Source of the DNA: Rhodopirellula islandica
Lineage (GTDB): Bacteria > Planctomycetota > Planctomycetia > Pirellulales > Pirellulaceae
DNA: 64,000 nucleotides
Assembly (NCBI RefSeq): GCF_001027925.1
Contig: NZ_LECT01000054.1
Location: 1 to 64,000, forward strand
Direction: 5' to 3'
Shown: positions 19,730 through 61,116 of the stretch, in pieces
Layout: every line of letters begins with the position of its first letter
Numbering within the stretch: position 1 is the stretch's first letter
The notes under the pieces: generated by a model
The model's input: the letters and a program-made list of their open reading frames with translations, nothing else
Databases searched by the model: none
What the model was told of the DNA's origin: nothing
Program-made: the position numbers and the translations under genes

Positions 19730-19854
19730 CACTGTCAAAGCTAAAAGTGAGGGTTGGTCGTAGTGGACGAGGCCACGAGTCCTTGGATTCGACGCCAGTT
19801 CAGGACTCGTGGCCTCGTCCACTACCCTAAAAACAAGTCCTGACAGACCACTAC
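19730..19854. repeat. Nested palindromic element (copy 2), right end overlaps a stop codon
   Basis: This is a second copy of the 125-bp unit at 19398-19522. The inner palindrome is 19760-19825. The right end, TGACAGACCACTAC at 19841-19854, covers the TAG stop codon (19851-19853, minus strand) of the tyrosine kinase gene. On the minus strand the element therefore starts GTAGTGGTCTGTCA. Confidence 0.92.
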
Positions 19855-22346
19855 GTGGTGGGGTGGCCGTTGGAGGATCCGTTGACGGTGGAACCGTTGG
19901 CGACGTGGCCGTTGCTGGAGGCGGCTTCGGGGATGGGAAGCGAACGGGTTGACGCGGCCGCAGTTCGTTTGCTGGATGAACGTTTGCGACGCGGGGCAGA
20001 GCCGGCATCATCATCGTCATTCGCTTCGTAGTACCGACGGTAATTGGCCACGTAGCCGTATTGTTTCTTGCCGTAGTAATCGTACGAACTGTACGCGTAA
20101 TGGTTGCTACGCGAGTCACGGCTGTTGACGATCACGCCTTCGATCGCGATGCCTTTGTCGGTCAAGACTTCCGTGGCCCGTTCGACCAACGTGCGATTGT
20201 TCTTTTCGATTCGGACCGCCAGGAAGACACCATCGACTTCGTCCGCCACGATCGAGGGGTCGGCCACGGCGAGCAACGGCGGCGTGTCGATCAAGATCAC
20301 GTCGTAGGTTTTGCGGGCCAAATCCAAGAACGCCACCCACTGGTCCGATTCCAGCAACTCCGAGGGCTCGGACGTCCGTGATCCGGAGGTGCACAGCGTC
20401 AGGCTGTCTTGCTCACTCGCCTGAACACATTCGGCGAGCGTTGCCGGGTTGATCGGGCCATCGTGACTGAGCAAATCCGACAGGCCAGGCGATCGTTCGA
20501 CACCGAAGTTAGCGGCCACCGTCGGGCGACGCATGTCCGCGTCGATCAGCAGCACGCGTTTGCCCGTCTGGGCGACCGAAACGGCCAGGTTCGCAATCGT
20601 GGTCGACTTCCCATCCGAAGGACTGGGGCTGGTCAGCAAGAACACCTTCTTGGATTGGCTCTTGGTCAGGAACAACAGGGACGTCCGCAAAACTCGGAAC
20701 GTTTCCGCCTCCGTGCCTCGGGGCAGGTGGAAAGTCGGGATCATCGCTGAGATGCCCGACCCTTCTTTGACCTTCTTTTTGAGAGCGGATTCCTTCAACC
20801 GGGGCACGTGTGCCAGAATGGAAGCCCCAACGATGCGTTCGACTTCCGCGGGATCGTGGAAGGTGCGGTCCGTCATTTCCGCCAGCAGGGCCAACGCCAG
20901 CCCCAACATCCCTCCGGCCAAAATCCCCAGGGCCGCAATTTTCGTTCTCGATGGCCAAACAGGAACACTCGCGGGCAGGGGCATCACAATCAAGTCCGTT
21001 GAGAAACCCGAGTAGTCATTGGTGAGGTTGATTTCGTGCAAGCGTTGAAACACCTCGTCATAGCGTGCTTGAGCACGATCCAGATTGGCTTTCAAGGAAC
21101 TGCCGAGCAGAAACGTCGTTTCGACTTCTTTGGCCAGCTTGGACTCCTTTTCGGAAAGTTCCAGCAACTGCTCTTCACGCTTCTCCATCTCGGAGATATC
21201 GCTCTGAAGGACTTGATAGTAGCTAGCCAGAATATCAGCCGGCTTGGCTTCGACTCGCTTGTCTTCCTCGGGGCGGTTCTCCCGGCTCTCATCCACAAAA
21301 CGCCGCATATTATCTAGTTCGGTACGCAGGGCACGAACGCTGGGGTGATTTTCACCGAACTCCGCCGCCATCAGACGTTCTTTGCTGGAGAGTGTAAGCA
21401 ACTGTTGATACTCGGTCCGCGTCGATTCCTGCATGACCGCACGAGAGAGCATCTCATCATTGGTTTGATCATCGCGATTGGCAGAGATCGCCAAAAACGC
21501 ATTCACCCGGTCAATTTCGTCAGCGTCCAGCAGCGACATCACGTGCACATCCGACAACGAATCCGGATCCTTGCCCTTCACAAACTCTCGAATCACAACT
21601 CGACGCGACTTCGCATGGGAAAGCGATTCACGAATCCCACCCAATTGCTGTTCGATGTTATTGAGGCGTAGTCGGTGGACATCTTCCAGAGAATCCCGGC
21701 CGTTGATGTTGCTGGAGATGAGCGCGGGGACTGACGCCACGAACTCACGGTATGCTTGATCCGCTTCTCGCAGGGCCTTCTCATTCTGAACCTGAGCTCT
21801 CGCAATCAATTCCGCCGCTTCGTTCCCGACACTGCTGGTTTGCTCGTCGATGTAGTCTTGGTAGCTATCGAAGATCGCTTGCAGAGCAGCCGCAGCCACC
21901 TCAGGATCGGGGTCCTGGTAAGTTGCCTTCAAAACACTTGCACTTTTTGCTAGTCCGTCCCCACCTTTGCTGACGGACAGATTCTCCGCCAAATCACCAA
22001 CTTTGACGTTGAGACCAGCAATCTGAATCGCGTTTTCCAGAATTTTGGGACTGGCAAACAATTCCATGTGGGTCGAGAGCACGTCCTCCTGCATGGACGC
22101 CATGTCTTTGGCCCCGTTATTCACCCCCGTGTTGGCCACTTCCCCGGAACGCTGGCCCACTAAAACGGCAAGCTTGGATTCGTAGATCGGGACTTGGTTG
22201 ACGAAGTAGATCGTCGCCAGGGTAACGCCGACAAAGATCCCCAGGGCGATCAGGTGGTAGCGTCGCCGGACAATCCCCAGCAGATCCAGATCAATGTCCA
22301 GTTCGTCGCCGTTGACGTCGTCAGCAGATGGGTTGGATCGAATCAT
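19851..22346 (-). CDS. Wzc-like chain-length regulator fused to a bacterial tyrosine kinase
   Basis: An 831-residue polysaccharide co-polymerase. The N-terminal Wzz domain has a first membrane helix near residues 33-52 (HLIALGIFVGVTLATIYFV), a long periplasmic coiled-coil region follows, and a second helix near 483-505 (AALGILAGGMLGLALALLAE). The cytoplasmic BY-kinase has Walker A SPSPSDGKSTT (about 572-582), Walker A' LLIDADMRRP (about 598) and Walker B VILIDTPP (about 680). A tyrosine cluster of more than ten Tyr lies at about 746-776 (YAYSSYDYYGKKQYGY), the autophosphorylation tail. The Walker A lacks the usual PGEGK form. The last 50 residues are Ser/Asn-rich. ATG 22346 is preferred to a GTG 39 bases upstream. 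It sets polymer length and export and heads the locus. Its stop codon comes from a repeat. Confidence 0.95.
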   Translation of the reverse strand: MIRSNPSADDVNGDELDIDLDLLGIVRRRYHLIALGIFVGVTLATIYFVNQVPIYESKLAVLVGQRSGEVANTGVNNGAKDMASMQEDVLSTHMELFASPKILENAIQIAGLNVKVGDLAENLSVSKGGDGLAKSASVLKATYQDPDPEVAAAALQAIFDSYQDYIDEQTSSVGNEAAELIARAQVQNEKALREADQAYREFVASVPALISSNINGRDSLEDVHRLRLNNIEQQLGGIRESLSHAKSRRVVIREFVKGKDPDSLSDVHVMSLLDADEIDRVNAFLAISANRDDQTNDEMLSRAVMQESTRTEYQQLLTLSSKERLMAAEFGENHPSVRALRTELDNMRRFVDESRENRPEEDKRVEAKPADILASYYQVLQSDISEMEKREEQLLELSEKESKLAKEVETTFLLGSSLKANLDRAQARYDEVFQRLHEINLTNDYSGFSTDLIVMPLPASVPVWPSRTKIAALGILAGGMLGLALALLAEMTDRTFHDPAEVERIVGASILAHVPRLKESALKKKVKEGSGISAMIPTFHLPRGTEAETFRVLRTSLLFLTKSQSKKVFLLTSPSPSDGKSTTIANLAVSVAQTGKRVLLIDADMRRPTVAANFGVERSPGLSDLLSHDGPINPATLAECVQASEQDSLTLCTSGSRTSEPSELLESDQWVAFLDLARKTYDVILIDTPPLLAVADPSIVADEVDGVFLAVRIEKNNRTLVERATEVLTDKGIAIEGVIVNSRDSRSNHYAYSSYDYYGKKQYGYVANYRRYYEANDDDDAGSAPRRKRSSSKRTAAASTRSLPIPEAASSNGHVANGSTVNGSSNGHPTT

Positions 22347-22893
22347 GATTTTTAGAAACTCGATTGACTGGTCGGCGAAGAGCACTGACCGCGGCTCGCG
22401 ACCAAGGAACTCTCAAGTCCGTTCCGTTCCGGCGAACAGATCACGCGAAAGGATGTTTGGAACTTGGGCAAGAGCCACACATCATTTGTACAGGTTGTGG
22501 AGCCCCCTCAGAAGGGAAACGCGTCAAATTCAACCCAGCACCGCACCTTTGGTCGCCAAGAAGAACTGCCGCTGCAGGGATTGCATCTCTGATTCTAGGT
22601 GCCAAACGAGCGTGAAGTATTGAAATGCCTTCATTTTGCGCGCACTTCGTGCTCTTGGGTGACACCACACCCCACCTTCGGCGGGCTCGTCTCCGAACCC
22701 CATCGAGTCGAAACGAGAATAGACCGGAATGACCAAGATTCAATCCCCATCTGGGGCCAATTGGGGGATTCAGGAATAAGGGCGACGATTTCGCAGCGTC
22801 GTGAGACAAGGGGGACTGATCCTCCCCAAATTCAGACGCGATTCCGATCCCACCAGCACGACACCCCCGTGCACATCCGCTCACTCCCCATTC
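22347..22893. other. Spacer upstream of the polysaccharide locus
   Basis: About 550 bp with no supported gene, probably holding the promoter for the leftward polysaccharide operon. I cannot point to a convincing -35/-10 pair. Short open frames here lack family features. Confidence 0.4.
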
Positions 22894-23053
22894 GAGCTAC
22901 GAGCTACGAGCTACGAGCTACGAGCTACGAGCTACGAGCTACGAGCTACGAGCTACGAGCTACGAGCTACGAGCTACGAGCTAACTGCTAACTGCTAACT
23001 GCTAACTGCTAACTGCTAACTGCTAACTGCTAACTGCTAACTGCTAACTGCTA
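22894..23053. repeat. Two-block heptamer array: (GAGCTAC)12 then (ACTGCTA)10
   Basis: Twelve perfect GAGCTAC units (22894-22977) pass into ten perfect ACTGCTA units (22984-23053) through one hybrid heptamer (GAGCTAA). The two-block plan is the same as in the gmd array, with unrelated units. The second unit resembles the TACTGCC unit at 1-98. Confidence 0.97.
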
Positions 23054-24301: not shown

Positions 24302-27300
24302 TCAGTTCGCAGAATCGCTCAGCAGCAGCACTTCTGAATCCAGCTGACCATCCAGATCAGAAAGCACTTCATCCACGGCGGAGGCGTACTCTCCTAGGCT
24401 GGAACCTCCGGAAATGGCGTCCAAGTCGGATTCCGTTCCTTGGTTGGGTGCTGCTACCAAGGTTGACTCGGAAGCGGCGTCCAATTCAGGATCGCTCTCT
24501 TCTGATGCATCGATTCCCCCTGAAACACTTGACTGCAGACTTGCAATCGAACTGGGGAAACTGGCCGGTGGCATCCCATTGAACAAGAAGAACACAATCC
24601 CTGCGTCCGAGCCATTCAAGACCCCATTGCCATTGATATCAGAGAAAATCGAGTAGAAGACCTCCCCTGGCTTTTTGTCAAAGGCGAAGTAGATGTTCCC
24701 AGCGTCGCTCCCGTTGACCACGCCGTTCTGGTTGGCATCACCGGGATTGACCGAGAACTCAAAATTGAAAGCGAAACCTTCCATCAGGTCGCCTGACGGG
24801 AGCGAGTCCCCTGTATTGAACTCGCCATCAAGCTGGGCACCCGAGGTACTCAACACCGTGTCCAGCAATTCCAGACGCAGATTGGCGGCGGGAATTGCCT
24901 TGTTCAGCGTGAGGACCAGGGCACCATCCGTGTCAACGAAAGGCGTTCCCACAATGATCGGCGGAGTCCCTGCATTGACGGTGCTGTGCAGGATCACATT
25001 CGCGGACGCCCCGGCCACCACGACGGTCGACAGGTCGACATCTTCGGTGAACTGAACTCGCAATTGATTGATACCGCTCCATGGCAACACCTTTGTCTGA
25101 TTCAGGCCCGTTGGGATGGTGTATCCCTTTCCATCGCCGCTGCCAATCAGATCCATGTCCGCGGCGTCTTTGAAGTCCGGAGCCCAGGTCGTTGAACTCA
25201 CCTGCACACCTGACACTTGCAGAGTCGCCAGGCTGTCGTCATCCAGGATGGTCCCAAACGCGAGGTCGGACACATTTGCCACAATGCCAACCACACTGGT
25301 TGTTGCTGACATCGAGATGCCGAAGACTTCGATGGGCTCAACATCCCCGTTGTCAACGATCGGCACAGCGACGCTCTGAGTCAGGGAACTCAGGGAGTTG
25401 AAAGTCAAAGTCGTCGAGGCCGGGAGATTGAAATCACTGCCAAGGGTCGCTGTGAAGGCACTGTTTCCGGAGTCAAGGAAATTGAGTGTGACATCGATAT
25501 CGCCAGCCGCAGCAGGAATCGCGTTGTCAACCGTCACGACGAAGACAGCCGTTCCGTCATCTTCGTTGACTTCGACATCCTCGATCGTGAATGTGAAGGG
25601 CGTCAAGACATCTTCGGTGGTCGTCCCTGCGACGACTCCTCCATCTTGATCGTCCACCTGCCAGTTGATCGTCAATGGTCCAGGTGCGCTGATCACCGAT
25701 CCAGGGATGGTGAGAATCGGACTGAAACCAAAGTCATCAAAAATCAAATCGCCGTCCCAATCGACGCTGTAAATCAAATCCCCCGTGTCGGAGACAGAGG
25801 GATCCGTTGCCAAGATTTGGAAAGATCCGTCCTGACCAACCACAAAGGGGCTCAACGCTGCCGCTTGAGTGACACTGGGTGCGACATTGGCGACATCCAG
25901 GTTCTGTGTTCGGCTGTCGAGGAACGACCCAACGGCTTGGAACTGCAACAAGTTGCCCTGCGTGAAGGCGTCGACTTCCAGGTCAGGTGAATAGTCCGAG
26001 TCATCGTCGAACACATGATCCACCGTGATCGACAACCCGTTGTTCAGGTCATCAATGTCATCAACATCGTCAACCGTGGTCGTCGTCCCGTCGCCCCAGC
26101 GAATTAGAAGCGAAGTCAATGGGTCGACCAATCCATCGGCGTAACCGGTGATCGTCAAGAGGTAGTCACTCGGACCCTCATTGTGAACACCTGCGGTGCT
26201 GTTGTCGGACAAGGTCAAAGCGGGGGCTTTGTCCGTGACCACCAAATCGAGCGTTTCGGTGGTACTCTGAGCTCCGCCACTACCAACATTGCCAAGGTCA
26301 TCGACCGTGAAGGTCAATGTCGCCGTGTCGCTTACCGCGGCACCTGGATCGACATCCCCAACCTCAAAGCGAAGCTCGGTTGCCAGCACGGTGTTGATGT
26401 CCGCTTTGGTCCCTGTCAGTCGGATGCCGCCAGCCACCGAAGACTCGGAGACCAGCCCAAGATCGGACGCCAAGCCAACCGCACCATCCGTGGAAGTGAT
26501 GTCCAGCTGAATGACATTGGAGTTCAATGATCCCGCGTCATCGGAGTCGGCATCATCAACCGAGACTCCAGTGACCGTCAGAACATCGCCTTCGGTCCCC
26601 GTGGGCAGACCGGTCGTTGGGATTGTGATCGATGGAGCATCATTGACTGCTTCGTACGTGAAGTCGATCGTCGAAGAGGCGGCATTGCTACCGGTCACGG
26701 TGAAGTCGATCGACACCGAGCCAATGAAGTTGGCGTTCGGCGTGAACGTGTATTCACCTGATCCATCCGGGCCTGAAAGAACACCGTCGCTGCCCGCGTA
26801 ATCGACATCTGTCACTGTGACTGTGCTATCCACATCAGTGGCTTGCAACTCCAATTCAGACACATTGAACGTCACCACCTCGTCTTCGTCGAATGGCCCC
26901 AGATTCAAGGCAACCACCGATGTCGGATCGTCGTCTGGCGTCACGGTGAAGGTGATCACGCTGGACGTCGTTGACTCAGCAGGCGTGCCCGCGTCTTCCG
27001 CTTTCACCTTGAAGGTTGCCGTTCCGTTTGCATCTGGATTCAGCGTGTAAACCAAGTCGCCAGCGGCATTGATGGTCGGCCCCGATGCGAACAGGCTCGA
27101 AGAGCTGTCATCCAAGTCGACGATCGAAAGAGCGACCGCTTCCATCTCATCGGCAGGACCAGCCAACACGTTGCTGACAAAGCCGGCGATTGGTCCGGCG
27201 GAGTCTTCGGCGACTGTCGGATCCGGTCCAACGTCAAACGTCGGAGCATCGTTGACCGGGGTGATGTTCACCGCCACGTTGCCAAGTGCGACGTTCGGCA

Positions 27301-30300
27301 TCGCACCGCTGCCGGTGCTGCCGTTGTCGGTGACCGACACGTCAATCGAATCCGCTGGCAAGCCGTTGGCATCTGTGTCGCCGGTGAACTGAACCGCCGA
27401 AGCGTTGTCCAAGAAGGTGTTCAACGCTGCCGTGGTGCCCGTCAAAGTGATCGTTGACGTGCCTGTGCTGCCCACGGTGACGCCGCCGGCATCCACTGCT
27501 GACAGCGTTCCGCCGCCAGTGGTTGCCAAGGTCACCGTCAGCGAACCGCCACTGGCGTCGACATCGAACAGGTTGATCGCTGACAAGTCAACGTCGCCTG
27601 GCAGATCTTCGACAACGCTAACAGAAACAGGCAGCGTACCCAGGTTTTGCGGGGGATCGTTCACTGGAGTCACGATCAACCCAACCGAATCAGAAACCGA
27701 ACCGGTTCCATCGGCAGCTGTGATGCTGAGTGTGTCGGTACCGTTGTAGTTGATTGTCGGTGTGTACAGCAGGCCATCCAGGGCTGCCGTGATGGCCGCT
27801 GGAGTTCCCGAGAAGGTCATTGTCGAGTCCGCTGTGCCATCACCGACAGTGAAGACTAGTCCCGTTGTCGAGGCCAGCGTCAGAACACCGTGGGCGACAG
27901 ACAGGGTCGCTTCTGGAGATGAATCCACGTCGCTGACCGAGATCGCATTGGAATTTGCGACCGAGAACGTTTTCGAGGAGTCCTCCGCCAGTGTTTCTGC
28001 AGCAGGAACGGTAATCGCCGGGGCATCGTCGTCCGCCACCACGGAGATGTTCACCGTTTCCGAAACAGTTCCCGCTCCAGTGCCCGTGTTGCCGTTGTCA
28101 TCCACATCGATGTCCAGCGTGGCTGGACCAAAGTAGTCCGCATCTGGATTGAACACCAAGGTCGCCAATGCCGCGTTGATGTCCGCCAGCGAACCGTCAA
28201 ACGTCATCGTTGTGTCACTGTCCCCGTCACCGGTGGCAAATGCCAGTCCAGTGTTGTCCAGTGTCAGCGTGCCATTGGTCGCCGTTAAGGTGACCGTCGC
28301 GACCGCCGAAGCGGTTTCGTCAATATCGACATCGGCAATCGAAATGGCATCGCCAGCGGTGAAGCTCAGGGGCGAATCTTCGCCGACCGAGACCATCAAG
28401 GGAGCCGTGATCACAGGAGCGTCGTTGGTGGCCGTTAGGTCGACCTCAAACGTTCCCGCGGACACTTCGTATCCACCAACAGGTCCCGCACCGGTGTTGC
28501 CCTCGTCGCTGACGAGGACTTCGATCTCGGGAGCAGCCGCCGTGTTGATGTTGTTCTGGTCAGTGGGCCCTTGATACTGGATTTGGCCTGCCGTCGAAAG
28601 AATCGCATTCAGGGCCGCTTCCGTGCCGCTGAAGATCAGCGACGTGGGCGTCGACCCCGCTTCGGTGGCGAGCAGTGTCGACAACGTCCCGGCCGAAGCC
28701 GTGATTGTCATGGTCATCAAACCGCCTGCGTCATCCGAATCGTCGATTTGCAGCGTTCCGAAGTCCAGGTCTTCGGTGGCATCTTCCTCCATGGAAACGC
28801 TGGTTGGCAACGCGCCGGTGAACTCCGGTGGCGTGTTGATCGGTGTGACGTTCAACGAGATCGTATCAACGTCGTTGAGCGCACCTCCCGGTAAGACACT
28901 TGAACTGACTCCGGTGTTGCCAAGGTCATTCGTGGTAACGACCAAACTGTCGGGGCCTTCGTAGTTTGTCGTCGGGGTGTATTCCAAATTGGCAAGTGCC
29001 AAGTTGACATCGTCAAACGTCCCCATGATCGTCACGGTCGCCGATGCCTCGGCACCCGACGTGATCGAAACACCCGCTGGCAAGGTGCCCAGCGAAAGTG
29101 TGCCTTGGGCAACAGTCAGTTCGACTTCCACCGCATCGACTGCCGGATCAACGTCGACATCGGAAACGGTGATCGTGGTCAAAGCCAGCATCCCGTTTTC
29201 GTCCACGTCAATCGGCCCCGCCGGCACGGTATTGGTCGGATTGTCGTTGACCGCGATCACGTTGATGGGAATCGTCTCTGTGTCGGTCAAATCACCGCCC
29301 GTCAATCCGTTGTTGCCCTGGTCGTCGACGTCGATCGTCAGGGCGTCCATCCCGTTGAAGTTGGCCGACGGTAGATAGGTCAACGTTGCCAAAGCGGCGT
29401 TGATATCAGTCAGATCTCCAGTGAAGGTCATCGTCAAATTTGCTACCCCGTCACCGACGGTGAAATCCAAGCCTGTGCTTGTACCAAGCGTCAATGTTCC
29501 ACTGGCAACGGCCAGGGTGACTTCCAAGTCATCGGCCCCTGCATCAACATCGCTGATCGAAACAGTACCAAAGCCGGTCGGAGTGGTTTCGTCTTCCAAA
29601 ACCGAAACTGGAGTCACGACGGGACCTGTCATTGGCACGGAAATCTCCGGCGCGGAGTTCACCGATTCAATGGTGATCACAAATGTCATCGTCCCGGTGT
29701 CATTGCCACTGTGGGCAGACCCACCGTCATCGGACAGTGACACCGTCACCGTCGCGGTTCCGTTGGCGTCCAACGCGGGCGTGAAGGTCAGCGTCCCACT
29801 CCCATCGATGGCAGGTTGAACGGAAAATAGCAATGTGTTGTTGTTCGATACAACGACGGGATCCAACGTCTGAGGTTCCAACACTTCATCGGCCGGACCA
29901 ACCGAAGCATTGCTCAAGAATCCGCTGATCGAAGCCGCACCGCTATTTTCATTCGCGGTTTGATCACCAAGCAAGTCAAATGTCGGGGCGTCGTTGACGG
30001 GGGTGACCGTGACATCGATGGAACCAAGGGCGACATCGGCTCCGCCACCAGCACCGTTGTTGCCTTGATCGTTGACCTTGACATCAATGGTGTCGAATGC
30101 AGGTCCGTTCGCATTCAGCACGACATTGGTGTATTGAACCGACGAAGAGTCGCCGAGGAACGTGTTCAGGTCGCCAACGGTACCCGTCAAAGTCAAAGTC
30201 GCAGTGCCATCACCACCAACCGTCACCCCACCACCGGTTGTTGCCGATAGTTGACCAGTCGCCGTCGATGAAATCGTCACGACGATTGGGTCGGTCCCCG

Positions 30301-33300
30301 CGTCGACATCCACCAAGTTGACCGAGGATAGATCCAAGTCCCCTGGTTCATCTTCGTTCACAGTCAATGTGGTTGGGAAACCACCCGAATTGCTGTCGCT
30401 CGGATCATCGTTGATCGGATCAACCGTGATATTCACGACTCGAGTGATCGTCAATGGATCAGCGACACCGTTGGTCGTCCCGTTGTCCTGCAACGTGATC
30501 GTGAACGTATCCGTGCCGTTGAAATTCAGGTCCGGCGTGTAGTCAATCTCACCACTGAGAAGGTCATAGACCACGGTGCCGTTTGCCGGCTGTGTACCAC
30601 CAATCAGGGTCAACGACTGAGAGACTTCATTCGCTGGCCCTGGAGTCGCACCGACAAGCATGTCTGCATCTAGCAGCGGAATGTCTTCGTCCGTCGAGTA
30701 CGCGTTCAATGGTGGTGCGATCGGAAGATCATTGACTTCGGTGACGGTGAAGCCGACTGACCCTGTGCCCGTCAGCGGCGTGCCGTCAAATCCGCTGGCG
30801 CCCCCGTCATTGACGGTAGCAGAGAGCGTTTCGGTGCCGTTGAAATCGCCGGTCGGCGAGTAGGTGACGTTGGCAGCCGACAAGTAGGCATTCAAGTCCG
30901 TTTGCGATCCGGTCAACGTGATCGTGCCGGTGCCAGAATCAGCGACCGTCACTCCGCCCGATCCAACCGCCGTCAGCGATCCGTTTGCGACCGAAAGTTC
31001 CAGGTCCAGTGGGGCCGCTCCGGCGTCAACGTCCGAAACGGTGATGCCAGTGATCGCATTGACAACGCTTGGCGAGAGACTGCCAATGCTGTCTTCGGCA
31101 ACGTTTGGCAGACTGGCCGGCATCGTCACGGTCGGTGCGTCGTTGACCGCGTCAATGTCAACACTGATCACTCCGACAGTCACATCGAGTGCACCACCGA
31201 TGCCGGTGTTGCCCAGGTCATCAAATTCGACCGTGATCGTGTCGGCGTCGGTGCCGATCGTGTCCGTTGCCCCGGTGTACTTGATCGCACCCACGCTTTG
31301 CAGCAGGGCATTCAAATCGGCCAAGGTTCCACTTGCAGTCAGAGCCTGTGGTGTTCCCCCCAGCGTAATCAAGCCGACGAGCGGGCCGGGAATCGCGATC
31401 GAGACCGCACCGTTCCCCGCACCTGTCGTGAGCGTCAGCATGGTCGTTCCAGCACCTGCATCGACGTCACTGATGACAGCGCCCGACATGTCGACTGCCG
31501 TGGTGGTTTCTTCGAACACGGTGATATCGGCTGGCAACGAACCCGTTACGGTCGGGCCATCATTGATGCCGTCAATCGAAACATTGACGGTGGCCGCGGT
31601 GATCGTCCCTGTTGCTCCAGTGCCCGTGTTCCCCAAGTCACTGAAGTCGACCGTGATGGTGTCGACGTTCGTTCCGACAACGTCCGTGGCTCCTTCGTAG
31701 CTAACTGCCGAAGTGTCTTGCAAAAGAGCATTGAGATCAGCCAGCGAACCGGTCAGGACGACCGACGTTCCCGATGCGGAAGCCGTCGCAACGTTTGTGT
31801 GTGATGCAAGATCAACGGAGATGATCCCGGCACCGGCACCCGATGAAATTGTCAATTCGGTGTCTTCACTGCCCGCATCAATGTCGGCCAACACAATCGA
31901 GGACAAGTCGACATTCGTATCGGTTTCTTCGTCCACGGTGATGTCCGCTGGCGTGCCAGTGGACGTCGGCGGATCGTTCTGCGGCAGAATATCAAGCGAC
32001 AAGGTCAGATTGGTCACGCTGGGCAACGCAGCCCCGGGGTTGTGCCCCAAATCGTTCGCACTGACCGTGATGTCCACATCGGTGTCGTCGTTCGCGTCTG
32101 GCGTGAACGTGACCGCGCCGTTCGTGCCTGCTAGCAACGCATTGATATCGGCTCGTGAACCGGTGACCGTCAACACGCTGGCAGACCCGCTAACGGCTAG
32201 CGATGTGCCGGCAACCGAAAGTGATCCTGACGCAGCGGACAACGACAGTTCCATGTCGTCGGTCCCCGCGTCGACGTCTTGCAGTGTGACACCGGACAGG
32301 TCGAGTGCGGCACTGTCGTCTTCGCCAACCGTTTGGCCGGTCGGGAAGCTGCCAGTGAAGGTGGGGGCATCATTGACGGGTGTGATATTGATCGGGACGG
32401 TTCCCAGGATCACGCTACCACCACCGCCAGCACCCGTGTTGCCGTTGTCCGTGACAATCAACGTCAAGAAGTGTGTTGGCGACCCGTTGGCGTTGAGTGC
32501 ACCTTGGAACTGGAGTGATCCTGTAGATCCTGCCAAGAAGCTGTTCAAGTTCGCGAGTGTTCCGGTGACGTTGACCGTTGAACTTCCGCTGCCGGTGATC
32601 GTCAGTGCAGGATTGGTCACAAACACCTTGCCACCAGCACTGGATGAGAATGTGACGGTCAGATTTCCAAGGCCGACATCCACGTCGTCAAGTTGAGCCG
32701 TGTTCAACCCGATGGTCGTTAACACATCTTCGTCAACGGTGATCGTTGCGGGGAGTGACCCGACGAGGTAAGGATCGTCGTTGACCGAGGTGACATTGAA
32801 ACTGGCGATCGCCGTGTCATTACCACCGTTTCCGTCACTGACCGCGAACGAAAGTTCGACGAGGCCTTTGAAATTGCCAGCGGGCGTGAACGTCCAGTTG
32901 GGGCTTGAACCTGAGATCGATCCAGAGCCAGTCACCACGTTGACTGCTGTCACGGTTAACGTGTCGCCTGGCAAATCAATGTCGTCCGTATTGGCCAGCA
33001 AATCGATGTCGGTGAAGGTCAACGCGTTGTCTTCGGTCGTGTCCGACAGCGTTACGTCGCCCGCATCGGGATCATCATTGGCAGGGGCAACTTCGATTTC
33101 AAAGGTGTGGGTTGTCGAGTCAAAGCCGCCATTGGAAGTCGCACCATCATCGCTGACCACAACCGTCACAACCGCTGTGCCGTTTTGATTATCCGCTAGT
33201 TCGTAGGTCAGTTCCCCGGTCACCAGACTGATTGCTGGTTGTCCGGTTGCTGTGAACAAGCTTGAACTATCGTTGGAAACCGCGACGGTGAGCGTCTGGG

Positions 33301-36300
33301 ACGACTCATTCGCAGCCCCGGCATCCAGTCCTGTCAAGAAACCTGGAACTGAAATGGATCCATCGTCTTCCGTATTGGACTGATCAGCCCCCAGTGTGAA
33401 GTTGGGAGCGTCATTGACCGCTGCGATGTTGATATCGATCGATGGCAGCGCGACAGCCGCCGCGACTCCATCGCTCAACGAGATGGTAAGCGTATCGCCG
33501 GGTGCCCCAAAGTCATCGGCCGCACCCTGATAGACAACCGCTCCAGGGCCATCCAGGAACGCATTGATGGCGGACTTGGTACCCACCAGCGTTACAGTGC
33601 TGGTGCCGGGGTTGGTCACCGTCACACCACCGCCAGTGGTGGCCGTCAGGATTCCGGAGCCGACTGCAAGGATCACGGAAAGATTGGTGGAATCCACATC
33701 CGCGACTTCAATTGCCGCCAAGTTCAATCCCGATGCAATGTCTTCGTTGACGCTTTGAGCCGCGGGCAACGTCCCCGCATTGTAGGGAGCATCATTGACA
33801 GCATTGACTGTGAAGCTGGCGGTCGCCGTGTTGGCCGAAGTCGCCGCCGATGGGGTTCCATCGTCCGTCACCTGGAACGTCAACTCGACCGGCCCGTTGT
33901 AATCGGTTGCCGGCGTGAAGGTGAATCCAGTGAGTGCGTCGCCGCTGATCGATCCAGACCCTACCGATATGACTGGCGTGGTCGCGATCAAGTTATCGAA
34001 TTCCGGATCGGTGCTATTGGCCGTCAATTCGGCGCTGGTGATTGCCAGCGGGGTGTCTTCGTTGGTGTTGGCAAGCGTGACATCGACAGCGACCGGGGCG
34101 TCATTGACCGGATCGACAACCACATTGAACGTGCTATCGACCGTCAAACCACCACTGTCCTCTGCGGTCACTGTGACCGTGGTCGCCCCGTTCTGGTTCG
34201 CTTGGAAATCCAAGATCAGATCGGTGCCAACAATGTTGGCCGTCACGAGCGAGCCGTCCGCACTGATCGCCGTCAATGTCAACGGTGTGGACATTGCGTC
34301 GTCTTCCAAGTCAGCGAATACACCGCTTAGATCAATCGTCACGTCAGCGGAGTCTTCATTCACGGTGACGTCTGTGATTGGATTCGCGACCGTCGGATCG
34401 TCATTCACTGGGGTCACTGTGATTGCGACAGTGTCCGTATCAACCAGGACATTGACAACATCGCCGGTGTTGCCCAGGTCGCTGGTGACAATCGTCAGCA
34501 GGTCGGCGCCGTTGTAGTTGGCGGTTGGGCTGTAGGTCAGCCCTTCCAACGCTGTGTTGATTGCCAGTGCCGTCCCTTGGAATGTCATCGCCGAATCGGC
34601 AGATCCTGTACCACTGGAGAGGAACAATCCACCGATCCCGCTCAACGTCAGGGCACCATGAGACACGGACAGCGTGACTTCCAACAGATTGGTGCCGGCC
34701 ACGACATCCACGTCCGAAACCGTGATTTCATTTGAAGTGAGGCTTTCGAATGTCAGCGTCCCATCTTCAACAACCGTTTGTGCCCCAGGAACGTCGTTGA
34801 CCGGCGAATCGTTCACTGCTGCCAAGTTGAAGCTGGCCTGCGCGGTATCCGATCCCATCGGGGTACCATCATCGCTGACCGTGAAGCCCAACACGACAGG
34901 GCCGTTGTAATTGGCCGCTGGTGTGTAGGTCCAAACACCAGGACTGGTCAGTGCAATGTCTCCCCCGCCACTGAAAACCACGACCGAACCGACCGACATC
35001 GTATCGCCTTCGGTATCCGAAGAACTTGCTAGCAGTTCGGCTTCGGTGATTGTTTTCGCCGTGTCTTCTGTTCCTGACGTGAGCGTCACGTTCCCGGCAT
35101 CCGGGGCATCGTTGTCCGCCGTGATGTTGATATCGAACATTTGTGCGTCGGCAGTGTCATCGGCGCCGACATTGGCAGTCCCGCCATTGTCGCTCAAGAC
35201 AACGGTGACGGTCGCGGTACCAAAGGCATCGGGTGCCAAAGTGTAGGTCAAATCACCCGTCACCGAGTCGATCGACGGCTGGACGGTAAACAGCGCGTTG
35301 TCGCTATTGGTGACGGTGTAGGTCAGCACCTGCCCACTTTCGTCAGCAGGTCCCGCCGATTGGGCAGAGACAAAACCGGGGACCGTTTGAGGCGCCGCAT
35401 CTTCGGTCACCGTTTGGCTGCCCCCGATCGTGAAGCTCGGTTCATCGTTGACTGCGGTGACATTGATGACGAACGTTTGCGTGGCTGTCGTGTCGAAACC
35501 ACCGTTCAGGGTCCCGCCGCTATCCATCAACTGGACGGTCACCGTCGACGTGCCGTTCGCATCCGCAGTTGGCGTGAACGTCAAGTCACCGGTCACGGGA
35601 TCAATCGCTGGCTGAGCACTGAACAATCCAGCGTTCGTGTTGCTGATGATGGTCGTCAGCGACTGCCCTGACTCGTTGGACGGTCCCTTCGAAATCGCCC
35701 CCAAGAAGCCGTTGACGGTCGTGGGGCCGGCATCCTCCAGAACGGTTTGGTCGGGACCGACCGTGAAGCTAGGCACGTCGTTGACCGGCGTCACGGTTAC
35801 GAATGCGGTGCCCACCAGGCCACTGGCCAGGGTGAACCCAAAGCTGGCGGGCCCAAAGTAATCGCTGTCGGGCACGAAGCGTACGGTGCCACTGCCAAGG
35901 TTGAACAGTGTTCCATGGGTCGCGGCAGTGGAATCAAAAGCAGTGATGTTGGTGCCGTCAACGCTGATGTTGAAATCGACCGATTCCTCTTCCAGAACCG
36001 TCGCATAGACGTAACCCGCTGTGTTGATCGAGAACGCATCGGTTTCGGTATATGCCGCTTGAACGTTGCCAGCGATGTCTTGGCCGTCCGCGACGGCAAT
36101 ATCGACATCCGGCGTGAATTCATCGGCGTCCGTGACCGAGTAAACCAACGTCAGCGTTGTATCGGCGGCTGACCAAGTGCTGGATGTTTGCGTTGTCGTG
36201 CCAGTGATCGACGGGGAGACGAACGAGATATTCGGTGCAACCGCGGTGTCCATGGTGGTGTCGAAGACGATGACAACTTCCAAGCCACTGCCCACATTCG

Positions 36301-44837: not shown

Positions 44838-45062
44838 GTAGCCGGATTCGCCAAGAATTCGGACGGGCAACAATCAGGAACATCCGGATTCTGTCGAATC
44901 CGGCTACGGTGGCCTGACGGGTGCTGAGGATGAGTTTGGCCCTCGGCCAAGAACCCTCGAGGCGGACTTGCTTCGCATCCTGTTGATTTAGCATCAAACG
45001 GTGTTTAATTGTCGGCTTTCGTAGTGGACGACACTTATTGACCGCTCATTCCTTCGTCAGCC
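44838..45062 (+). repeat. Long direct repeat, copy 1 (left flank of the rlmA-like gene)
   Basis: It begins with a family A element (44838-44862), has an inverted partner at about 44884-44907, and continues with about 150 bp that recur almost base for base at 46373-46575. A partial extra family A copy precedes it at 44819-44830, just after the oxidoreductase stop. The 46-bp palindrome insert seen in copy 2 is absent here (junction near 45031). The A pair may act as a hairpin terminator for the upstream gene. Confidence 0.93.
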
Positions 45063-45429
45063 GTAACCCAGGGCGTTGCCCTGGGCTGTCATAGGGCTGC
45101 CCCGTTGGGGCGAAGTCGTGGAACAGAACTTGCGCAAACCAAGACGCTCCACAACATCAAACATTTCGCGGTCCAGGCGAGCGCCCGTCGTCTGATCGTT
45201 CAATCTTTGAAACGTCTTGAATCAACAGTCTGTTGGCCAGTGAGGTGAGCTGGCTGCATCATCTCGGTGAGCTCTGTGCTCTTTGTGGCAAACGACATGC
45301 AGTGGGCGAGATTGGGAATCTGCTGGACGCCTCGCTTCTGGCGAAGCATCGGCTGGGTGCCATGTGAGACATGGCCTACATTGGTGCCGGGAACCATACC
45401 TCGCCGGTGCGCCGGGAATGCGTCTGCGT
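45063..45429. other. Repeat-filled spacer before the rlmA-like gene
   Basis: It contains a palindrome CCCAGGGCGTTGCCCTGGG (45066-45084), a GCCCCGTTGGGGC palindrome near 45098 followed by GAAGTCGTGG (again at 62635), and a TCAACAGTCTGTTG motif near 45222 of a type also seen near 23432 and 47072. No gene is supported. Confidence 0.6.
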
Positions 45430-45453
45430 CCGAATTCTGGCGAATCCGGCTAC
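45430..45453 (-). repeat. Family A palindrome forming the leader of the rlmA-like gene
   Basis: An inverted copy (CCGAATTCTGGCG...GGCTAC) ends 13 bases before the chosen ATG at 45467. The only purine-rich bases before that ATG (GGGCGAGACCGGA) come directly from the repeat edge. Confidence 0.9.
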
Positions 45454-45466
45454 GGGCGAGACCGGA

Positions 45467-46306
45467 ATGAAAAGGAAAACAGGTTTGTTTGAGTTGCGCT
45501 GTACAGTTCGAAATTGCGGGTTGGCTTTGTCGCCGGTGGAGGGTGGGCTGCGCTGTGAGAAGCGGCACCATTTCGATCGGGCTCGCGAGGGCTATTACAG
45601 CTTGTCCCAGCCACAGGATCGCAAGTCCAAACAACCGGGCGACGCCGATGCCGCTGTGCTGGCTCGTCATCGTTGGCTACAGCGTGGGCATGCCAGCGGA
45701 TTGATCGATGCCTTGCGGCCTTGGACGGCGATGCAAGCGGGAAACGGCAACTCCCGAACGATCGACCTAGGTTGCGGCGAAGGCACCTTTGGGCCGGCTT
45801 TGTTTGGCGATTCGCCGGGCAGTTACTGCGGGATCGATCTGTCAAAGAAAGCGATCAAGCTGGCCGCTCGCGGGTGGCCGGAGGCGACTTGGGTTTGGGC
45901 CAACGCGGACCGATCGCTGCCGGTGGCGGATGCCAGTGTGTCGTGTGTGCTGTCGTTGTTCGGCCGTCGGCCGGTTGCCGAGATCGCTCGGGTGCTGACG
46001 GAAGATGGCATGCTGATCGTTGCCGTTCCGGGTGAAGAGGACTTGATCGAGCTGCGTGAACACGTGCAGCAATCCGGGCAGCGCCGAAGTCGATGGGAGA
46101 AGGTCGTCGACGAGATGGCGGTTGCGGGATTGAAACTGGTCGAACATCGGCTGTGGCAAGAACAGGTTGACCTGGACAGTGAAGCGATTGCCGATGCAAT
46201 GGCAATGACCTATCGCGGCGTGCGTTTTTCCCAGAACGCTCGCGTGCAGACCGCCACCGCGATGCCAGTGACGCTGGCCGCGGATCTGATGTTGTTCCGG
46301 ACGTAG
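45467..46306 (+). CDS. RlmA-like 23S rRNA (guanine-N1) methyltransferase
   Basis: A 279-residue class I SAM methyltransferase. An N-terminal zinc finger has C12-x4-C17-x12-C30-x3-H34 (in RlmA the first spacing is two, so it is slightly altered), followed by the RlmA-typical FDRAREGYYSL and AAVLARHRWLQRGHASGLID. The SAM loop TIDLGCGEGTFGPAL is near residue 103. By family it would methylate a guanine of hairpin 35 in 23S rRNA; some relatives give macrolide resistance, but nothing here shows that. ATG 45467 is chosen over an in-frame start 96 bases upstream that would translate a repeat. The TAG stop at 46304-46306 is the TAG of a family A element. The gene is bracketed by two long direct repeats. 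Confidence 0.88.
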   Translation: MKRKTGLFELRCTVRNCGLALSPVEGGLRCEKRHHFDRAREGYYSLSQPQDRKSKQPGDADAAVLARHRWLQRGHASGLIDALRPWTAMQAGNGNSRTIDLGCGEGTFGPALFGDSPGSYCGIDLSKKAIKLAARGWPEATWVWANADRSLPVADASVSCVLSLFGRRPVAEIARVLTEDGMLIVAVPGEEDLIELREHVQQSGQRRSRWEKVVDEMAVAGLKLVEHRLWQEQVDLDSEAIADAMAMTYRGVRFSQNARVQTATAMPVTLAADLMLFRT

Positions 46307-46575
46307 CCGGATTCGCCAAGAATTCGGAGGGGCGACGAGCAGAGACATCCGAATTCTGGCGAATCCGGCTACCGGGTGGCCTGACGGGTGCTGAGGATGA
46401 GCTTGGCCCTCGGCCAAGAACCCTCGAGGCGGACTTGCTTCGCATCCTGATGATTTAGCATCAAGCGGTGTTTAATTGTCGGCTTTCGTAGTGGACGAGG
46501 TCACGAGTCTAGGACTGCTGGACTCGTAACCTCGTCCACTACGACACTTATTGACCGCTCATTCCTTCGTCAGCC
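46303..46575 (+). repeat. Long direct repeat, copy 2 (right flank of the rlmA-like gene)
   Basis: It begins with a family A element (46303-46327), whose TAG is the gene's stop codon, and has its inverted partner at 46349-46372. It then follows copy 1 (44838-45062) closely, differing by single bases and by a 46-bp palindromic insert at about 46499-46544. Confidence 0.93.
46488..46542. repeat. Family B palindrome (GTAGTGGACGAGG...CCTCGTCCACTAC)
   Basis: A 55-bp palindrome with the same ends as the inner elements at 19431-19496 and 19760-19825. The homologous site in copy 1 of the direct repeat (45021-45031) has only GTAGTGGACGA, so filled and empty (or collapsed) versions are both present. Confidence 0.93.
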
Positions 46576-58153: not shown

Positions 58154-58156
58154 TTG

Positions 58157-58231: not shown

Positions 58232-58380
58232 GTTCAGAAAGTCATGGACTTTTCTGGGGTGTGCCCGGACTGGTTCAGCAGTCCAGGCCTGTGGCATCGG
58301 CCAGGTTCCGTTTTAACAACGGAGTGACTCGGCGCTGGTGGTTCTGTTCGCACGGTCGCAACTTGACGTGCGACAGCCGA

Positions 58381-58575: not shown

Positions 58576-58939
58576 TGCCGCTCCGTAAACCCTTTCAATT
58601 CAATCGTTTGCATGGTCCAAATCCTCCAAGTCGAGGAATGAAGTGTCGCGTCCGAGCAGCAGTAAATACCACACTCGTCGCGGTGAAGGCCGCGAATCAT
58701 AACGACCTAACACCGCACCCCACAACCGAGGAAACGGAAAGTACGGCCGTTTTATGCCGAAAACGCCGCTTTCAACCTTGATCTGAAACCACTGTTTCGA
58801 TCGTGCGTGAACCTGGGCGTTTTGGCGTCGCTGAGTCATCTCGGTTCATCGAGCCTTGAACGGCCGCGTCGCAATGCTGCGGGGCCGCCAAGACGCTTGT
58901 TAGCCGAGGCGTGATTCACCAGTTTCTGGTTTATCGGGT
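58576..58939. other. Spacer upstream of rpsU
   Basis: 364 bp with no supported gene. It should hold the rpsU promoter and the 3' end region of the small gene at 58940. A 79-codon minus-strand frame here has no recognisable features. Confidence 0.45.
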
Positions 58940-59227
58940 TCAGGCAGCGGCTCTCGTGAGGTTTTCCATCGGAACCGTTTCACACCGGACTCCGTCGACC
59001 CCGTAATAAACCATGGATTTGGTTTTGAGGTCAGCAATCGCGGTGAGTTTGACGCTTCGGGGACCGTGCAAGCAGAAGTAAAGGCCGCAGGTGGCTCCTC
59101 GCCGAACCACTTCCCGCTGAGTCAGCGGGAACTGATGGGGTTCAAGGTGTCCCAATTCGCACAGTTTGTCTTCGACTTGGCGACGCAGTAGCGGCAAATC
59201 GATCGTTTCGAGAGAATACCCGATCAT
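58940..59227 (-). CDS. Small conserved protein of unknown function
   Basis: A 95-residue soluble protein. ATG 59227 is chosen because AAAGGA lies five bases upstream; the frame is open for another 60 codons but the ATG two codons earlier has worse spacing. The segment TCGLYFCLHGPRSVKLTA followed by KSMVYYGVDGVRCE resembles, from memory, small proteins common in planctomycete genomes. No catalytic motif or membrane segment is visible; the two halves look like beta-strand pairs. It stands alone between rpsU and purU on the minus strand. I do not know its function. Confidence 0.7.
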   Translation of the reverse strand: MIGYSLETIDLPLLRRQVEDKLCELGHLEPHQFPLTQREVVRRGATCGLYFCLHGPRSVKLTAIADLKTKSMVYYGVDGVRCETVPMENLTRAAA

Positions 59228-59595
59228 CAACATCCTTTCGTCCAACGGGGAGTCTGATGCCGATGGTGTCACGCCTCCACGGCGTGACAGTTTGTCCCTG
59301 GGTAACAGGGGCCATCTGGTCACTGCGAGCATCAGACGCCGACGGTATCGACGCGCCGGGCGGAGAATCTTCGGGGCGATCTGGTTCAGGTCCGGTCGTG
59401 CGGCCAACCCGATTGAAATTCATTCCTATTGCACCCGTTGTGGCAGTCTTGCGCGATTAGACGGGGGGAGCCACTCCAGTCGATCAGACGGTTCACCCGC
59501 GTTGGTTGCTCCGGATCGCCGCCGCTTCAGCAAAAAACGCAGCGTCGGCCAGAATTTCTCAATCTGGATCCCCAGCTTCTCAATCTGGATCCCAG
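59228..59595. other. Spacer between purU and the small conserved gene
   Basis: It holds a GTCACGCC/GGCGTGAC hairpin (59270-59290) and a tandem 22-bp direct repeat (TCTCAATCTGGATCCC core, 59556-59597) that directly touches the TAG stop of purU. No gene is supported. Confidence 0.6.
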
Positions 59596-60495
59596 CTACT
59601 GGGCATTCTGGGCCGCGGTCACCACATCCTTGCGGGGCACGACGCGGTGAAAGTGCAGGTGGACTTCGCGATCGACCACGCGGCGCAAGCCTTCGACCAA
59701 ACACGCCGGTTCATTCTCGGACTCGCCCTGAGCAATGATTTTGTCCAGGGGAGTGCCTGGAACGACTGAGAACGTTCGCTGGTTGATCGTTTGATTGCCA
59801 GCATCCAGTTCGGGAATGATGAAATGGCAGGTGGCCCCAAACGTCAGCATCCGGGCGTTGTGGGCGTCGTGATACGGGCGGAATCCTGGGAAACCAGGCA
59901 GCAACCCGTGGTGAAGGTTGATGATCCGTCCGCCTGCGAATTGCCAGCAGGCGTCGGCAGGCAGAATCCGCATGTAGCGAGCGAGAATCAGGTAGTCGAT
60001 GTCGTATTCATCCAGGGTGGCCAGGAGTGCGGCGTCATCGACCGCTCCCGTGCCATCGCCGATCATCCGGAAGTCAGAGTCGAATTCGTCCGCGAGAAAC
60101 CCGAGTTTCTTTCGGTTGGAGATGATCACCGGCACTTCGGCGGCTATTTGGCCGGAGGCAACTGCCTCCAAAACGGCTCGTGGTGTGTGCTCCACATAGG
60201 TGCAGGCCACGGCCAATCGTGGGCGACTCGAACGAGCGTCGGGGCTCCAGGCCCGGATGGACAACCCGGTGTGTTCGCCGATTTGTTTCATTTCGTCCTG
60301 CAACTGCGTGAACAATCGTTGCGGGTCGGGGCCAGCGTCGAACTGCAGGCGGCAGAGCATCGCGAAAAGTTCTTCCTCGTCGTGGTCATACATCTGGATT
60401 TCGGAAATCCGAGCCCCTCGCGCGGTGACGTGGTGAATGATCGGATCTGCCAAACCGGAGTGATCCGGTCCCAAGGCGGTGATGACGACTTCCAT
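59596..60495 (-). CDS. purU: Formyltetrahydrofolate deformylase
   Basis: A 299-residue enzyme that hydrolyses 10-formyl-THF to formate and THF, balancing one-carbon pools. An N-terminal ACT domain (VVITALGPDHSGLADPIIHH, to about residue 85) is followed by the formyltransferase-fold catalytic domain with VIISNRKKLGFLADEF, IINLHHGLLPGFPGF (the conserved Asn and His pair near 190) and the catalytic Asp in CHFIIPELDAGNQTINQ near 230. Length and order fit PurU. ATG 60495 is divergent from the cysteine-cluster gene, with 65 bp between starts. No strong Shine-Dalgarno sequence is seen. Confidence 0.95.
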   Translation of the reverse strand: MEVVITALGPDHSGLADPIIHHVTARGARISEIQMYDHDEEELFAMLCRLQFDAGPDPQRLFTQLQDEMKQIGEHTGLSIRAWSPDARSSRPRLAVACTYVEHTPRAVLEAVASGQIAAEVPVIISNRKKLGFLADEFDSDFRMIGDGTGAVDDAALLATLDEYDIDYLILARYMRILPADACWQFAGGRIINLHHGLLPGFPGFRPYHDAHNARMLTFGATCHFIIPELDAGNQTINQRTFSVVPGTPLDKIIAQGESENEPACLVEGLRRVVDREVHLHFHRVVPRKDVVTAAQNAQ

Positions 60496-60560
60496 GTGGA
60501 GGCTTTTGCGAGGAAACTGTTGGCCCGACGAATTTGCAAATTATCACATTCGACCCAATC

Positions 60561-61052
60561 ATGCCCACCGCATCCAAGTTGCCCGTCGCCACGCCGCCCT
60601 CGGTCACTGGCCGTCGCCGATCCGATTTTCCCGCCGATGCGAATTTGTGCGATCATTGCACAGCGAAGTGCTGTCATTACTTCGCGCTGCCGATCGACGA
60701 GCCGGTGACGCGAAAAGATTTTGACTTCATGCGGTGGTATTTGCTGCACGATCGAGCCACCGTGTTTGTGGACGAGGACACGTGGTACTTGCTCGTTCAC
60801 ACGACTTGCAAGCACTTGCAAGACGATTATCGATGCGGCATCTACGAAACCCGGCCTCAAATCTGTCGTGAGTACACCACGAAGGAATGTGAGTTCGAGG
60901 ACGACTGGTGCTACGAGAAGTACTTCGAAACGCCGGAGCAAATCGACGAGTACGCTGATGCCCTGTTTGGCCCGCAGTTTCCCGAAGGAGCCGACCGGGA
61001 CATCGACTCGATCCGCAGTCGACGGCCGACGGGACTCCCGGTCGTTGGGTAG
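60561..61052 (+). CDS. YkgJ-family cysteine cluster protein
   Basis: A 163-residue protein with the zinc- or iron-chelating cysteine cluster of the YkgJ/UPF0153 family: LCDHCTAKCCHYFALPID near residues 30-47, then TTCKHLQDDYRCGIYETRP and QICREYTTKECEFEDDWC. The role of the family is not known. ATG 60561 is chosen; an earlier in-frame start adds nine residues. The C-terminal end is Asp/Arg-rich. The TAG stop at 61050-61052 is contributed by the left end of a palindrome. hisS follows after about 107 bp. Confidence 0.9.
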   Translation: MPTASKLPVATPPSVTGRRRSDFPADANLCDHCTAKCCHYFALPIDEPVTRKDFDFMRWYLLHDRATVFVDEDTWYLLVHTTCKHLQDDYRCGIYETRPQICREYTTKECEFEDDWCYEKYFETPEQIDEYADALFGPQFPEGADRDIDSIRSRRPTGLPVVG

Positions 61053-61116
61053 CGGAACTCGTCAAGAGTTTCGGCAAATTTGGATGCAAACCGAAAGTCT
61101 TGACGACTTCCGCTAC
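61049..61116. repeat. Family D palindrome with GTAG...CTAC ends
   Basis: Arms 61049-61074 and 61091-61116 match at 24 of 26 bases, begin GTAGCGGAACTCGTCAAGA and end CTTCCGCTAC. The TAG at 61050 ends the cysteine-cluster gene. The hairpin lies between that gene and hisS, so it may act as a terminator or processing site. Confidence 0.92.

What the first reader, a model, noticed from the sequence alone, without database searches (positions are those of the whole stretch)
19851..61116. Different palindrome families with shared GTAG...CTAC ends supply stop codons to host genes
At least three repeat families with unrelated middles (A: GTAGCCGGATTCG...; B and its nested host element: GTAGTGG...; D: GTAGCGGAACTCG...) all begin GTAG and end CTAC. 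The TAG of this end is the actual stop codon of the tyrosine kinase gene (19851-19853), the rlmA-like gene (46304-46306) and the cysteine-cluster gene (61050-61052). The heptamer array does the same for the first glycosyltransferase (91-93), and the purU TAG (59596-59598) touches a 22-bp tandem repeat. So four, perhaps five, of about nine TAG stops in the window coincide with repeat ends. This suggests an unnamed class of mobile palindromes that insert at, or are tolerated at, gene ends, with a termini-recognising mobilising activity (for example a REP-type transposase elsewhere).
Basis: partly seen in the sequence, partly recalled or inferred. Interest (0 to 1): 0.78.

Follow-up and report, generated by a model that had tools for sequence, protein, structure and literature searches.

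The report
Miniature transposon landing on stop codons
The stop codons at these repeat ends have two separate causes: two come from ordinary GTAG-type bacterial palindromes, while the third belongs to a 125-base miniature transposon that favours the letters CTAG and so often sits exactly on a C-TAG stop codon that was already there.

Summary
The sequences are as described, but they are not one class. (1) The A (46303) and D (61049) palindromes look like paired GTAG-tagged REPs, a named family; Di Nocera 2013 already says their ends often provide TAG stops. Orthologues without the repeat use other stops nearby, so these stops are repeat-supplied, but rarely: 2 credible cases among 83 GTAG-intact non-B units in 1.66 Mb. 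(2) The kinase stop (19851-19853) is at the end of a 125-bp MITE (GTGGTCTGTCA...TGACAGACCAC) that carries palindrome B inside. Of 72 copies examined, 16 have a gene's TAG stop exactly at an end; no other position within 200 bp upstream holds more than 2 stops. At 11 of these 16 sites a relative without the MITE stops at the same codon, 8 times TAG; at 3 the relatives end differently; 2 have no aligned orthologue. The favoured target CTAG nearly explains this: 57 of 413 non-disruptive CTAGs are stop codons. So the stop codon is mostly the target, not the product. No parent transposase was found in the DNA examined.

The parts
19727..19851 (.). 125-bp MITE copy carrying palindrome B; its intact end (GTGGTCTGTCA on the - strand) abuts the kinase stop codon, the other end is degraded (AATCACTGTCA)
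   Evidence: nhmmer 143 bits, model 6-125
19851..19853 (-). TAG stop codon of the tyrosine kinase gene (19851-22385): flanking TA plus the first G of the MITE; context CGTAG
   Evidence: the G011 orthologue stops at the same codon, there inside an A-family REP
19760..19825 (.). palindrome B (66 bp), internal part of the MITE
19398..19522 (+). second MITE copy, with palindrome B at 19431-19496
19695..19718 (-). A-family REP downstream of the MITE; the orthologous REP supplies the kinase stop in G011
   Evidence: lower coordinate set by eye
46303..46372 (.). A-family REP pair (REPIN-like), 70 bp; its TAG at 46304-46306 is the rlmA-like stop
44838..44907 (.). A-family REP pair, 70 bp, not at a stop
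46488..46542 (.). stand-alone palindrome B, 55 bp, outside any MITE
   Evidence: model 31-99 only, 35 bits
61049..61116 (.). D-family REP pair (REPIN-like), 68 bp; its TAG at 61050-61052 is the stop of the cysteine-cluster gene
1..94 (-). heptamer array (GTAGGCA)n that contains the stop of the gene 91-1656; a tandem repeat, unrelated to the above

Best explanation
Two unrelated kinds of mobile DNA meet stop codons here. (a) A 125-bp non-autonomous transposon (MITE) with terminal repeats GTGGTCTGTCA/TGACAGACCAC and palindrome B inside favours the target CTAG. CTAG is scarce in this genome, and outside genes a good share of the CTAGs are C-TAG stop codons. Insertion there duplicates the target, so the gene keeps a TAG at the same codon and the copy survives. 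About a fifth of the copies sit on stop codons for this reason. Shown: the exact position, the preferred flanks, and relatives without the MITE that stop at the same codon. Inferred: loss of insertions at coding CTAGs by selection; a DDE transposase acting in trans (not found); duplication of four bases, as for IS5, rather than of TA only. (b) The A and D palindromes are inverted pairs of GTAG-tagged REPs, presumably moved by RAYT transposases. They now and then supply a new TAG: D replaced an old stop next to it, and at the rlmA-like gene a 12-bp deletion (read by eye) removed the old TGA and exposed the in-frame TAG of the REP.
For: MITE anatomy. Stops: 16 of 72 copies of at least 100 bits (144 ends) at exactly d=-2; 54 stops spread over positions -200 to -3, at most 2 per position; no same-strand stop inside the MITE. 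In the contigs taken without regard to MITEs: 7 of 26. Thirteen of the 16 have C before TAG. Flanks: CTA on the left or TAG on the right in 50 of 72 copies, both in 25. CTAG is scarce: 881 in 2.03 Mb against 7629 expected from base composition. Target supply: 57 stop-codon, 356 intergenic and 394 coding CTAGs outside MITE flanks; 13.8% of the non-disruptive ones are stops (15.0% in the unselected contigs); binomial P between 0.03 and 0.28 for 13 to 16 of 72. Relatives: at 11 of 16 sites one stops at the same codon, 8 with TAG, against TAG in 247 of 1385 called genes, P 1e-4. Spread: GTAGTGGACGAGG occurs 201 times here and 9 to 13 times in G002, G004, G005 and G007. IS5 duplicates PyTAPu, most often CTAG (PMC5493358, passages). 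For (b).
Against: At 3 of the 16 sites (C48_14817, C7_21670, C7_42909) the aligned relatives end differently, so the MITE may have made a new stop there; 2 sites have no aligned orthologue. At 3 of the 11 agreeing sites the relatives have only TAA or TGA, so a TAG arose first or came with the MITE; one agreeing site (C25_38657) rests on an 88-codon ORF in a repeat-rich stretch. Only 25 of 72 copies have CTA and TAG on both sides; 22 have neither. Junctions: first and last bases of the supposed 4-base duplication agree across ends above shuffles (P 0.012 and 0.019) but the middle two do not (P 0.94 and 0.56); all 6 copies with TTAG on the left have C, not T, at the other end, though 3 of these abut another repeat. 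That no copy lies fully inside a called gene is weak evidence for selection, as an insertion would break the ORF; 3 copies overlap a called gene in part. No transposase with these terminal repeats was found. No RAYT locus in G000 has A, B or D units in its flanks.
Confidence: 0.76

Rival explanations
1. One class of GTAG...CTAC palindromes, moved by a REP-type transposase that recognises the ends, inserts at gene ends and supplies the stop.
For: Shared GTAG letters; 11 Y1_Tnp genes in the genome; the A and D cases supply stops; at 3 of 16 MITE sites relatives end differently.
Against: The kinase element has its own terminal repeats outside palindrome B; 1 of 67 structure-defined GTAG hairpins is at a stop; relatives without the MITE already stop at the same codon at 11 of 16 sites.
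Confidence: 0.07
2. The MITE machinery recognises gene ends as such (for example a terminator structure or convergent transcription), beyond the CTAG letters.
For: 16 of 72 is above the 13.8% expected from CTAG supply, P 0.03; 33 of 71 copies with a gene called on both sides lie between convergent genes and 6 between divergent ones (no null computed).
Against: With only the 13 C-TAG stops P is 0.19, or 0.28 with the share from the unselected contigs; 56 of 72 copies are not at stops.
Confidence: 0.1
3. The element duplicates TA only (IS630/Tc1-like) and its own first base G completes TAG, or turns TAA into TAG.
For: CTA[G...C]TAG fits both readings; at C15_19920 and C31_71821 a relative has TAA at that codon; copies with TTAG on the left have C at the other end, 6 of 6.
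Against: The three copies with GTAG on the left carry G, not C, at the far end; two PF13358 loci lack the terminal repeats.
Confidence: 0.4
4. The coincidence is an artefact: ORFs are bound to stop at a built-in TAG.
For: Three of the five first counts for REP units were ORFs accepted on length alone.
Against: All 16 MITE-stop genes have a codon-use score above 12 (18 to 274); a relative confirms the end at 11 sites.
Confidence: 0.03

Closest known systems
GTAG-tagged REPs and REP dimers (REPINs) with RAYT transposases (Di Nocera 2013 PMC3733652; Nunvar 2010 PMC2817692)
   Same: A and D: GTAG tag, imperfect hairpin, many copies, inverted pairs; ends giving TAG stops are already reported for this family, which is also reported from Planctomycetes
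   Different: No RAYT gene found next to A or D units in this genome; stop supply is rare here
IS5 and IS5-like MITEs: IS5 (PMC5493358, passages), MITEPsy1 with target CTAG or YTAA (PMC3189936, passages)
   Same: About 100 bp (MITEPsy1), terminal inverted repeats, CTAG target, possibly a 4-base duplication
   Different: Different terminal repeats; carries palindrome B; a fifth of copies on stop codons; no parent transposase found
MITEs with TA duplication: RUP of pneumococcus, linked to IS630-Spn1 (PMC2229807, passages), and enterobacterial RU-1 (PMC2759123, passages)
   Same: TA at both flanks, stem-loop inside; RU-1 has also been found at gene 3' ends
   Different: In the RU-1 case the insertion removed the normal stop and lengthened the protein; here the stop codon is kept

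Membership tests
GTAG REP / REPIN (A and D) | GTAG tag at the 5' end of an imperfect hairpin | tested here: met
   GTAG-CCGGATTC-GCCAA-GAATTCGG and GTAG-CGAAACTC-GTCAA-GAGTTTCG read; the whole pairs fold strongly
GTAG REP / REPIN (A and D) | many copies, often as inverted pairs | tested here: met
   D: 5 pairs and 4 singles; A: 2 pairs and 32 loosely matched singles in 1.66 Mb, so for A pairs are the exception
GTAG REP / REPIN (A and D) | a RAYT gene flanked by the same REP | tested here: inconclusive
   A, B and D seeds absent from 37 of 38 genus Y1_Tnp loci held, A once about 600 bp away in L280; 4 of 11 such loci in G000 have other GTAG REPs close by (one search picked a wrong ORF at several loci, so its flanks are approximate)
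GTAG REP / REPIN (palindrome B) | free mobility as a GTAG REP | tested here: inconclusive
   Most copies read in G000 lie inside the MITE; stand-alone copies exist; a RAYT-like gene in 1 of 120 B-bearing loci
IS5-type MITE | short, terminal inverted repeats | tested here: met
   125 bp, 11-bp inverted repeats
IS5-type MITE | CTAG / YTAR target, 4-base duplication | tested here: inconclusive
   22 of 63 end-complete copies CTAG/CTAG; outer bases agree above shuffles, middle bases do not; TTAG copies disagree
IS5-type MITE | shared terminal repeats with a DDE transposase gene | tested here: inconclusive
   None at 3 PF01609 loci or 2 PF13358 loci; 7 inward pairs in held DNA, 6 using an end of a MITE copy, the seventh with both ends inside large ORFs. 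Only about 2.03 of 7.43 Mb was read, so not filed as an IS5 derivative
IS630/Tc1-type MITE | TA duplication | tested here: inconclusive
   Compatible with many flanks; the three GTAG-flanked copies speak for a longer duplication

The most novel reading that the evidence does not exclude
Stop codons are a safe harbour for any transposon that duplicates CTAG. Where CTAG is rare, a large share of the harmless CTAGs are C-TAG stops, so such elements collect precisely on stop codons and leave the protein unchanged while placing a strong hairpin directly at the end of the reading frame. Elements with other ends but the same B core appear to do this too in another Pirellulaceae genome (cTAG stops at L170, L173, L175 and L224, 4 of the 23 loci held of it, rough gene calls, no control).
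Probability: 0.58. Interest if true: 0.6.

Novelty: new variant of a known kind. Interest (0 to 1): 0.45.

Why it matters
It shows how a transposon can gather at gene ends without breaking genes and without any gene-end recognition: its target letters happen to be a stop codon that target duplication preserves. It makes a testable prediction for every CTAG-duplicating element in bacteria. It also warns against reading repeat-stop overlaps as stops supplied by repeats unless empty sites are checked. My searches on CTAG or TA targets, MITEs and stop codons and on Rhodopirellula repeats showed no description of it; they cover open-access papers only, and of the ten papers listed with a possible bearing I looked at passages of six.

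Tried and rejected
Considered and rejected or left open: one unified GTAG class; a general excess of stops at GTAG hairpins (1 of 67); an IS630-type or IS4/IS5-type parent (the five loci lack the terminal repeats; for the one pair that uses no MITE end); a RAYT cognate for A, B or D in G000. A search with C17:200001-220000 landed in a repeat-rich stretch and gave a noisy map, but it let me place a 400-kb piece of G002; few empty sites of REPs could be read there. A paper search for the genome note of a guessed species gave nothing, and one on REPs and ribosome stalling gave nothing usable. One search read minus-strand loci the wrong way round; one search is the corrected version. Dropped before counting: 15 of 87 merged MITE model hits, those under 100 bits (mostly stand-alone B; one, C31:311180, also lies at a TAG stop).

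Full report
What was claimed. Palindromes of several families share GTAG...CTAC ends and the TAG of that end is the stop codon of three genes; this was read as one unnamed class of mobile palindromes.

Checking the window. The palindromes are there and TAG ends the three open frames. Nine of 32 called genes in the window end in TAG. But the kinase stop lies 25 bp outside palindrome B.

Palindrome B is mostly the inside of a MITE here. Aligning the surroundings of 16 paired B palindromes showed constant flanks: GTGGTCTGTCACAGCTAAAAGTGAGGGTTGATC - B - CCTAAAAACAAGTCCTGACAGACCAC, 125 bp in all, with inverted ends. The genome holds 69 left arms with up to 3 mismatches. A profile search of 2.03 Mb (1.66 Mb taken without regard to MITEs, plus 40 regions chosen around left arms) gave 87 merged hits, 72 with at least 100 bits, no duplicates among them. 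The letters GTAGTGGACGAGG occur 201 times in this genome, 9 to 13 times in its four closest relatives by protein identity (G002, G004, G005, G007), 53 times in G012 and 199 times in G006.

MITE ends and stop codons. Of 72 MITEs (144 ends), 16 have a gene's stop codon exactly as TA plus the first G of the element; from -200 to -3 there are 54 stops, never more than 2 at one position; no same-strand stop falls inside the element and no copy lies fully inside a called gene, although 3 overlap one in part. An insertion inside a gene would break the ORF, so this last point is weak. In the unselected contigs the figure is 7 of 26. Uniform placement in non-coding DNA would give 0.33 of 72. Thirteen of the 16 have C before TAG.

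Why. CTA on the left or TAG on the right is seen in 50 of 72 copies, on both sides in 25. CTAG is scarce: 881 in 2.03 Mb against 7629 expected from base composition. Outside MITE flanks there are 807: 394 in genes, 356 between genes and 57 that are C-TAG stops. If insertions in genes are lost, 13.8% of the rest should be on stops (15.0% by the unselected contigs); 13 to 16 of 72 were seen (P 0.03 to 0.28). So the target letters and selection nearly suffice; selection itself is inferred.

Relatives without the MITE. I joined the C-termini of the 16 genes into one query and searched G002 and G004; the kinase orthologue of G011 came. At 11 of 16 sites a relative stops at the same codon: TAG at 8 (C10_74746, C24_39568, C25_38657, C29_76761, C31_102067, C45_12882, C5_43165, C54 kinase), only TAA or TGA at 3 (C15_19920, C31_71821, C17_16216). 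C25_38657 is an 88-codon ORF and the weakest of them. At 3 the aligned relatives end differently (C48_14817, C7_21670, C7_42909), and 2 had no aligned orthologue (C17_149090, C43_19620). TAG at 8 of 11 compares with 247 of 1385 genes (P 1e-4). Hence the stop codon was usually there first.

Duplication length. The element begins with G and ends with C, and the target begins with C and ends with G, so TA and CTAG duplications look alike. In 63 end-complete copies, the three with GTAG on the left have G at the other end, and the outer bases agree across ends above shuffles (P 0.012 and 0.019); but the middle bases do not (P 0.94 and 0.56), and all six with TTAG on the left have C at the other end, three of them next to another repeat. 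I lean, not strongly, to a 4-base duplication as in IS5, whose known targets are mostly CTAG (PMC5493358, passages). No transposase gene with these ends was found at 5 DDE loci or among 7 inward pairs in held DNA.

The kinase in detail. In G011 the kinase stop is the TAG of an A-family REP (GTAGCTGGATTCGCC), and the same REP is still downstream of the MITE in this genome. So a REP first supplied the stop, and the MITE later inserted there; its far end is altered. This order is inferred from two genomes.

The A and D palindromes. Each unit is GTAG followed by an imperfect hairpin; D is often, A seldom, in inverted pairs. At the cysteine-cluster gene, D is present with the same TAG in five genomes (G000, G002, G004, G005, G007), one codon after a conserved LPVV-like end; the other eight of the genus lack it and stop 0 or 2 codons after that end, with TGA, TAA or (G001, G012) TAG. 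At the rlmA-like gene, G002 and G004 have a TGA a few bases before the A palindrome; against the third of four tandem copies (147-bp period) in G002, this genome lacks, read by eye, 12 bp including that TGA, and the in-frame TAG of the REP is used. Such cases are few: of the four d=+1 hits for non-B units, two are ORFs accepted on length alone, leaving 2 among 83 GTAG-intact units (A 17, D 13, E 38, F 15).

What is known. Di Nocera 2013 (PMC3733652; abstract, sections 15 and 16, passages) describes GTAG REPs, names Planctomycetes among hosts, and states that their termini often provide the TAG stop. Nunvar 2010 (PMC2817692; passages) describes RAYTs. Four of 11 Y1_Tnp loci here have other GTAG REPs close by. 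MITEs at gene ends are known: RU-1 at the end of an enterobacterial gene removed its normal stop (PMC2759123, passages) and a Coxiella MITE lengthens a gene in one strain (PMC5896051, passages). I saw no description of a MITE set into stop codons that keeps them.

Elsewhere. In one genome (23 loci), cTAG stops abut what look like element ends in L170, L173, L175 and L224; tTAG ones in L208 and L190 of two others (element ends judged by eye, no control; many other stops near B in that table show no such fit).

Noticed in passing
window 17554-46372: A-family REPs cluster in this window: 11 of 16 matches to the A seed in 1.66 Mb lie in these 64 kb.
   Followed up: no
L125 2323-2804: In G002 the end of the rlmA-like gene with the A palindrome is repeated four times in tandem (147-bp period), like a BIME that has taken in gene sequence.
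   Followed up: partly
L141-L260: The B palindrome sits between differing flanks, some looking like other terminal repeats, in several Pirellulaceae; why the core is so conserved is unexplained.
   Followed up: partly
window 45371-45470: The first ~36 codons of the called rlmA-like ORF resemble a stretch at C29:268042 and overlap an A REP, so the true start is probably a later ATG (MKRKTG).
   Followed up: no
C10:84361-85658 of the genome: Seven palindrome-B half-units in one direction, mostly at about 119-bp spacing.
   Followed up: no
genome-wide, e.g. C16:136200-136328: Another abundant repeat (GCAGGTCGGCAGGA ... GTGAGCCGTTTGGGCGTT, about 60 copies of some 12-mers in 1.66 Mb, both strands) abuts several MITE copies.
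   Followed up: no
MITE copies of the genome: 33 of 71 MITE copies with called genes on both sides lie between convergent genes, 6 between divergent ones.
   Followed up: no
window 24302-41986: A single open frame of 5894 codons.
   Followed up: no
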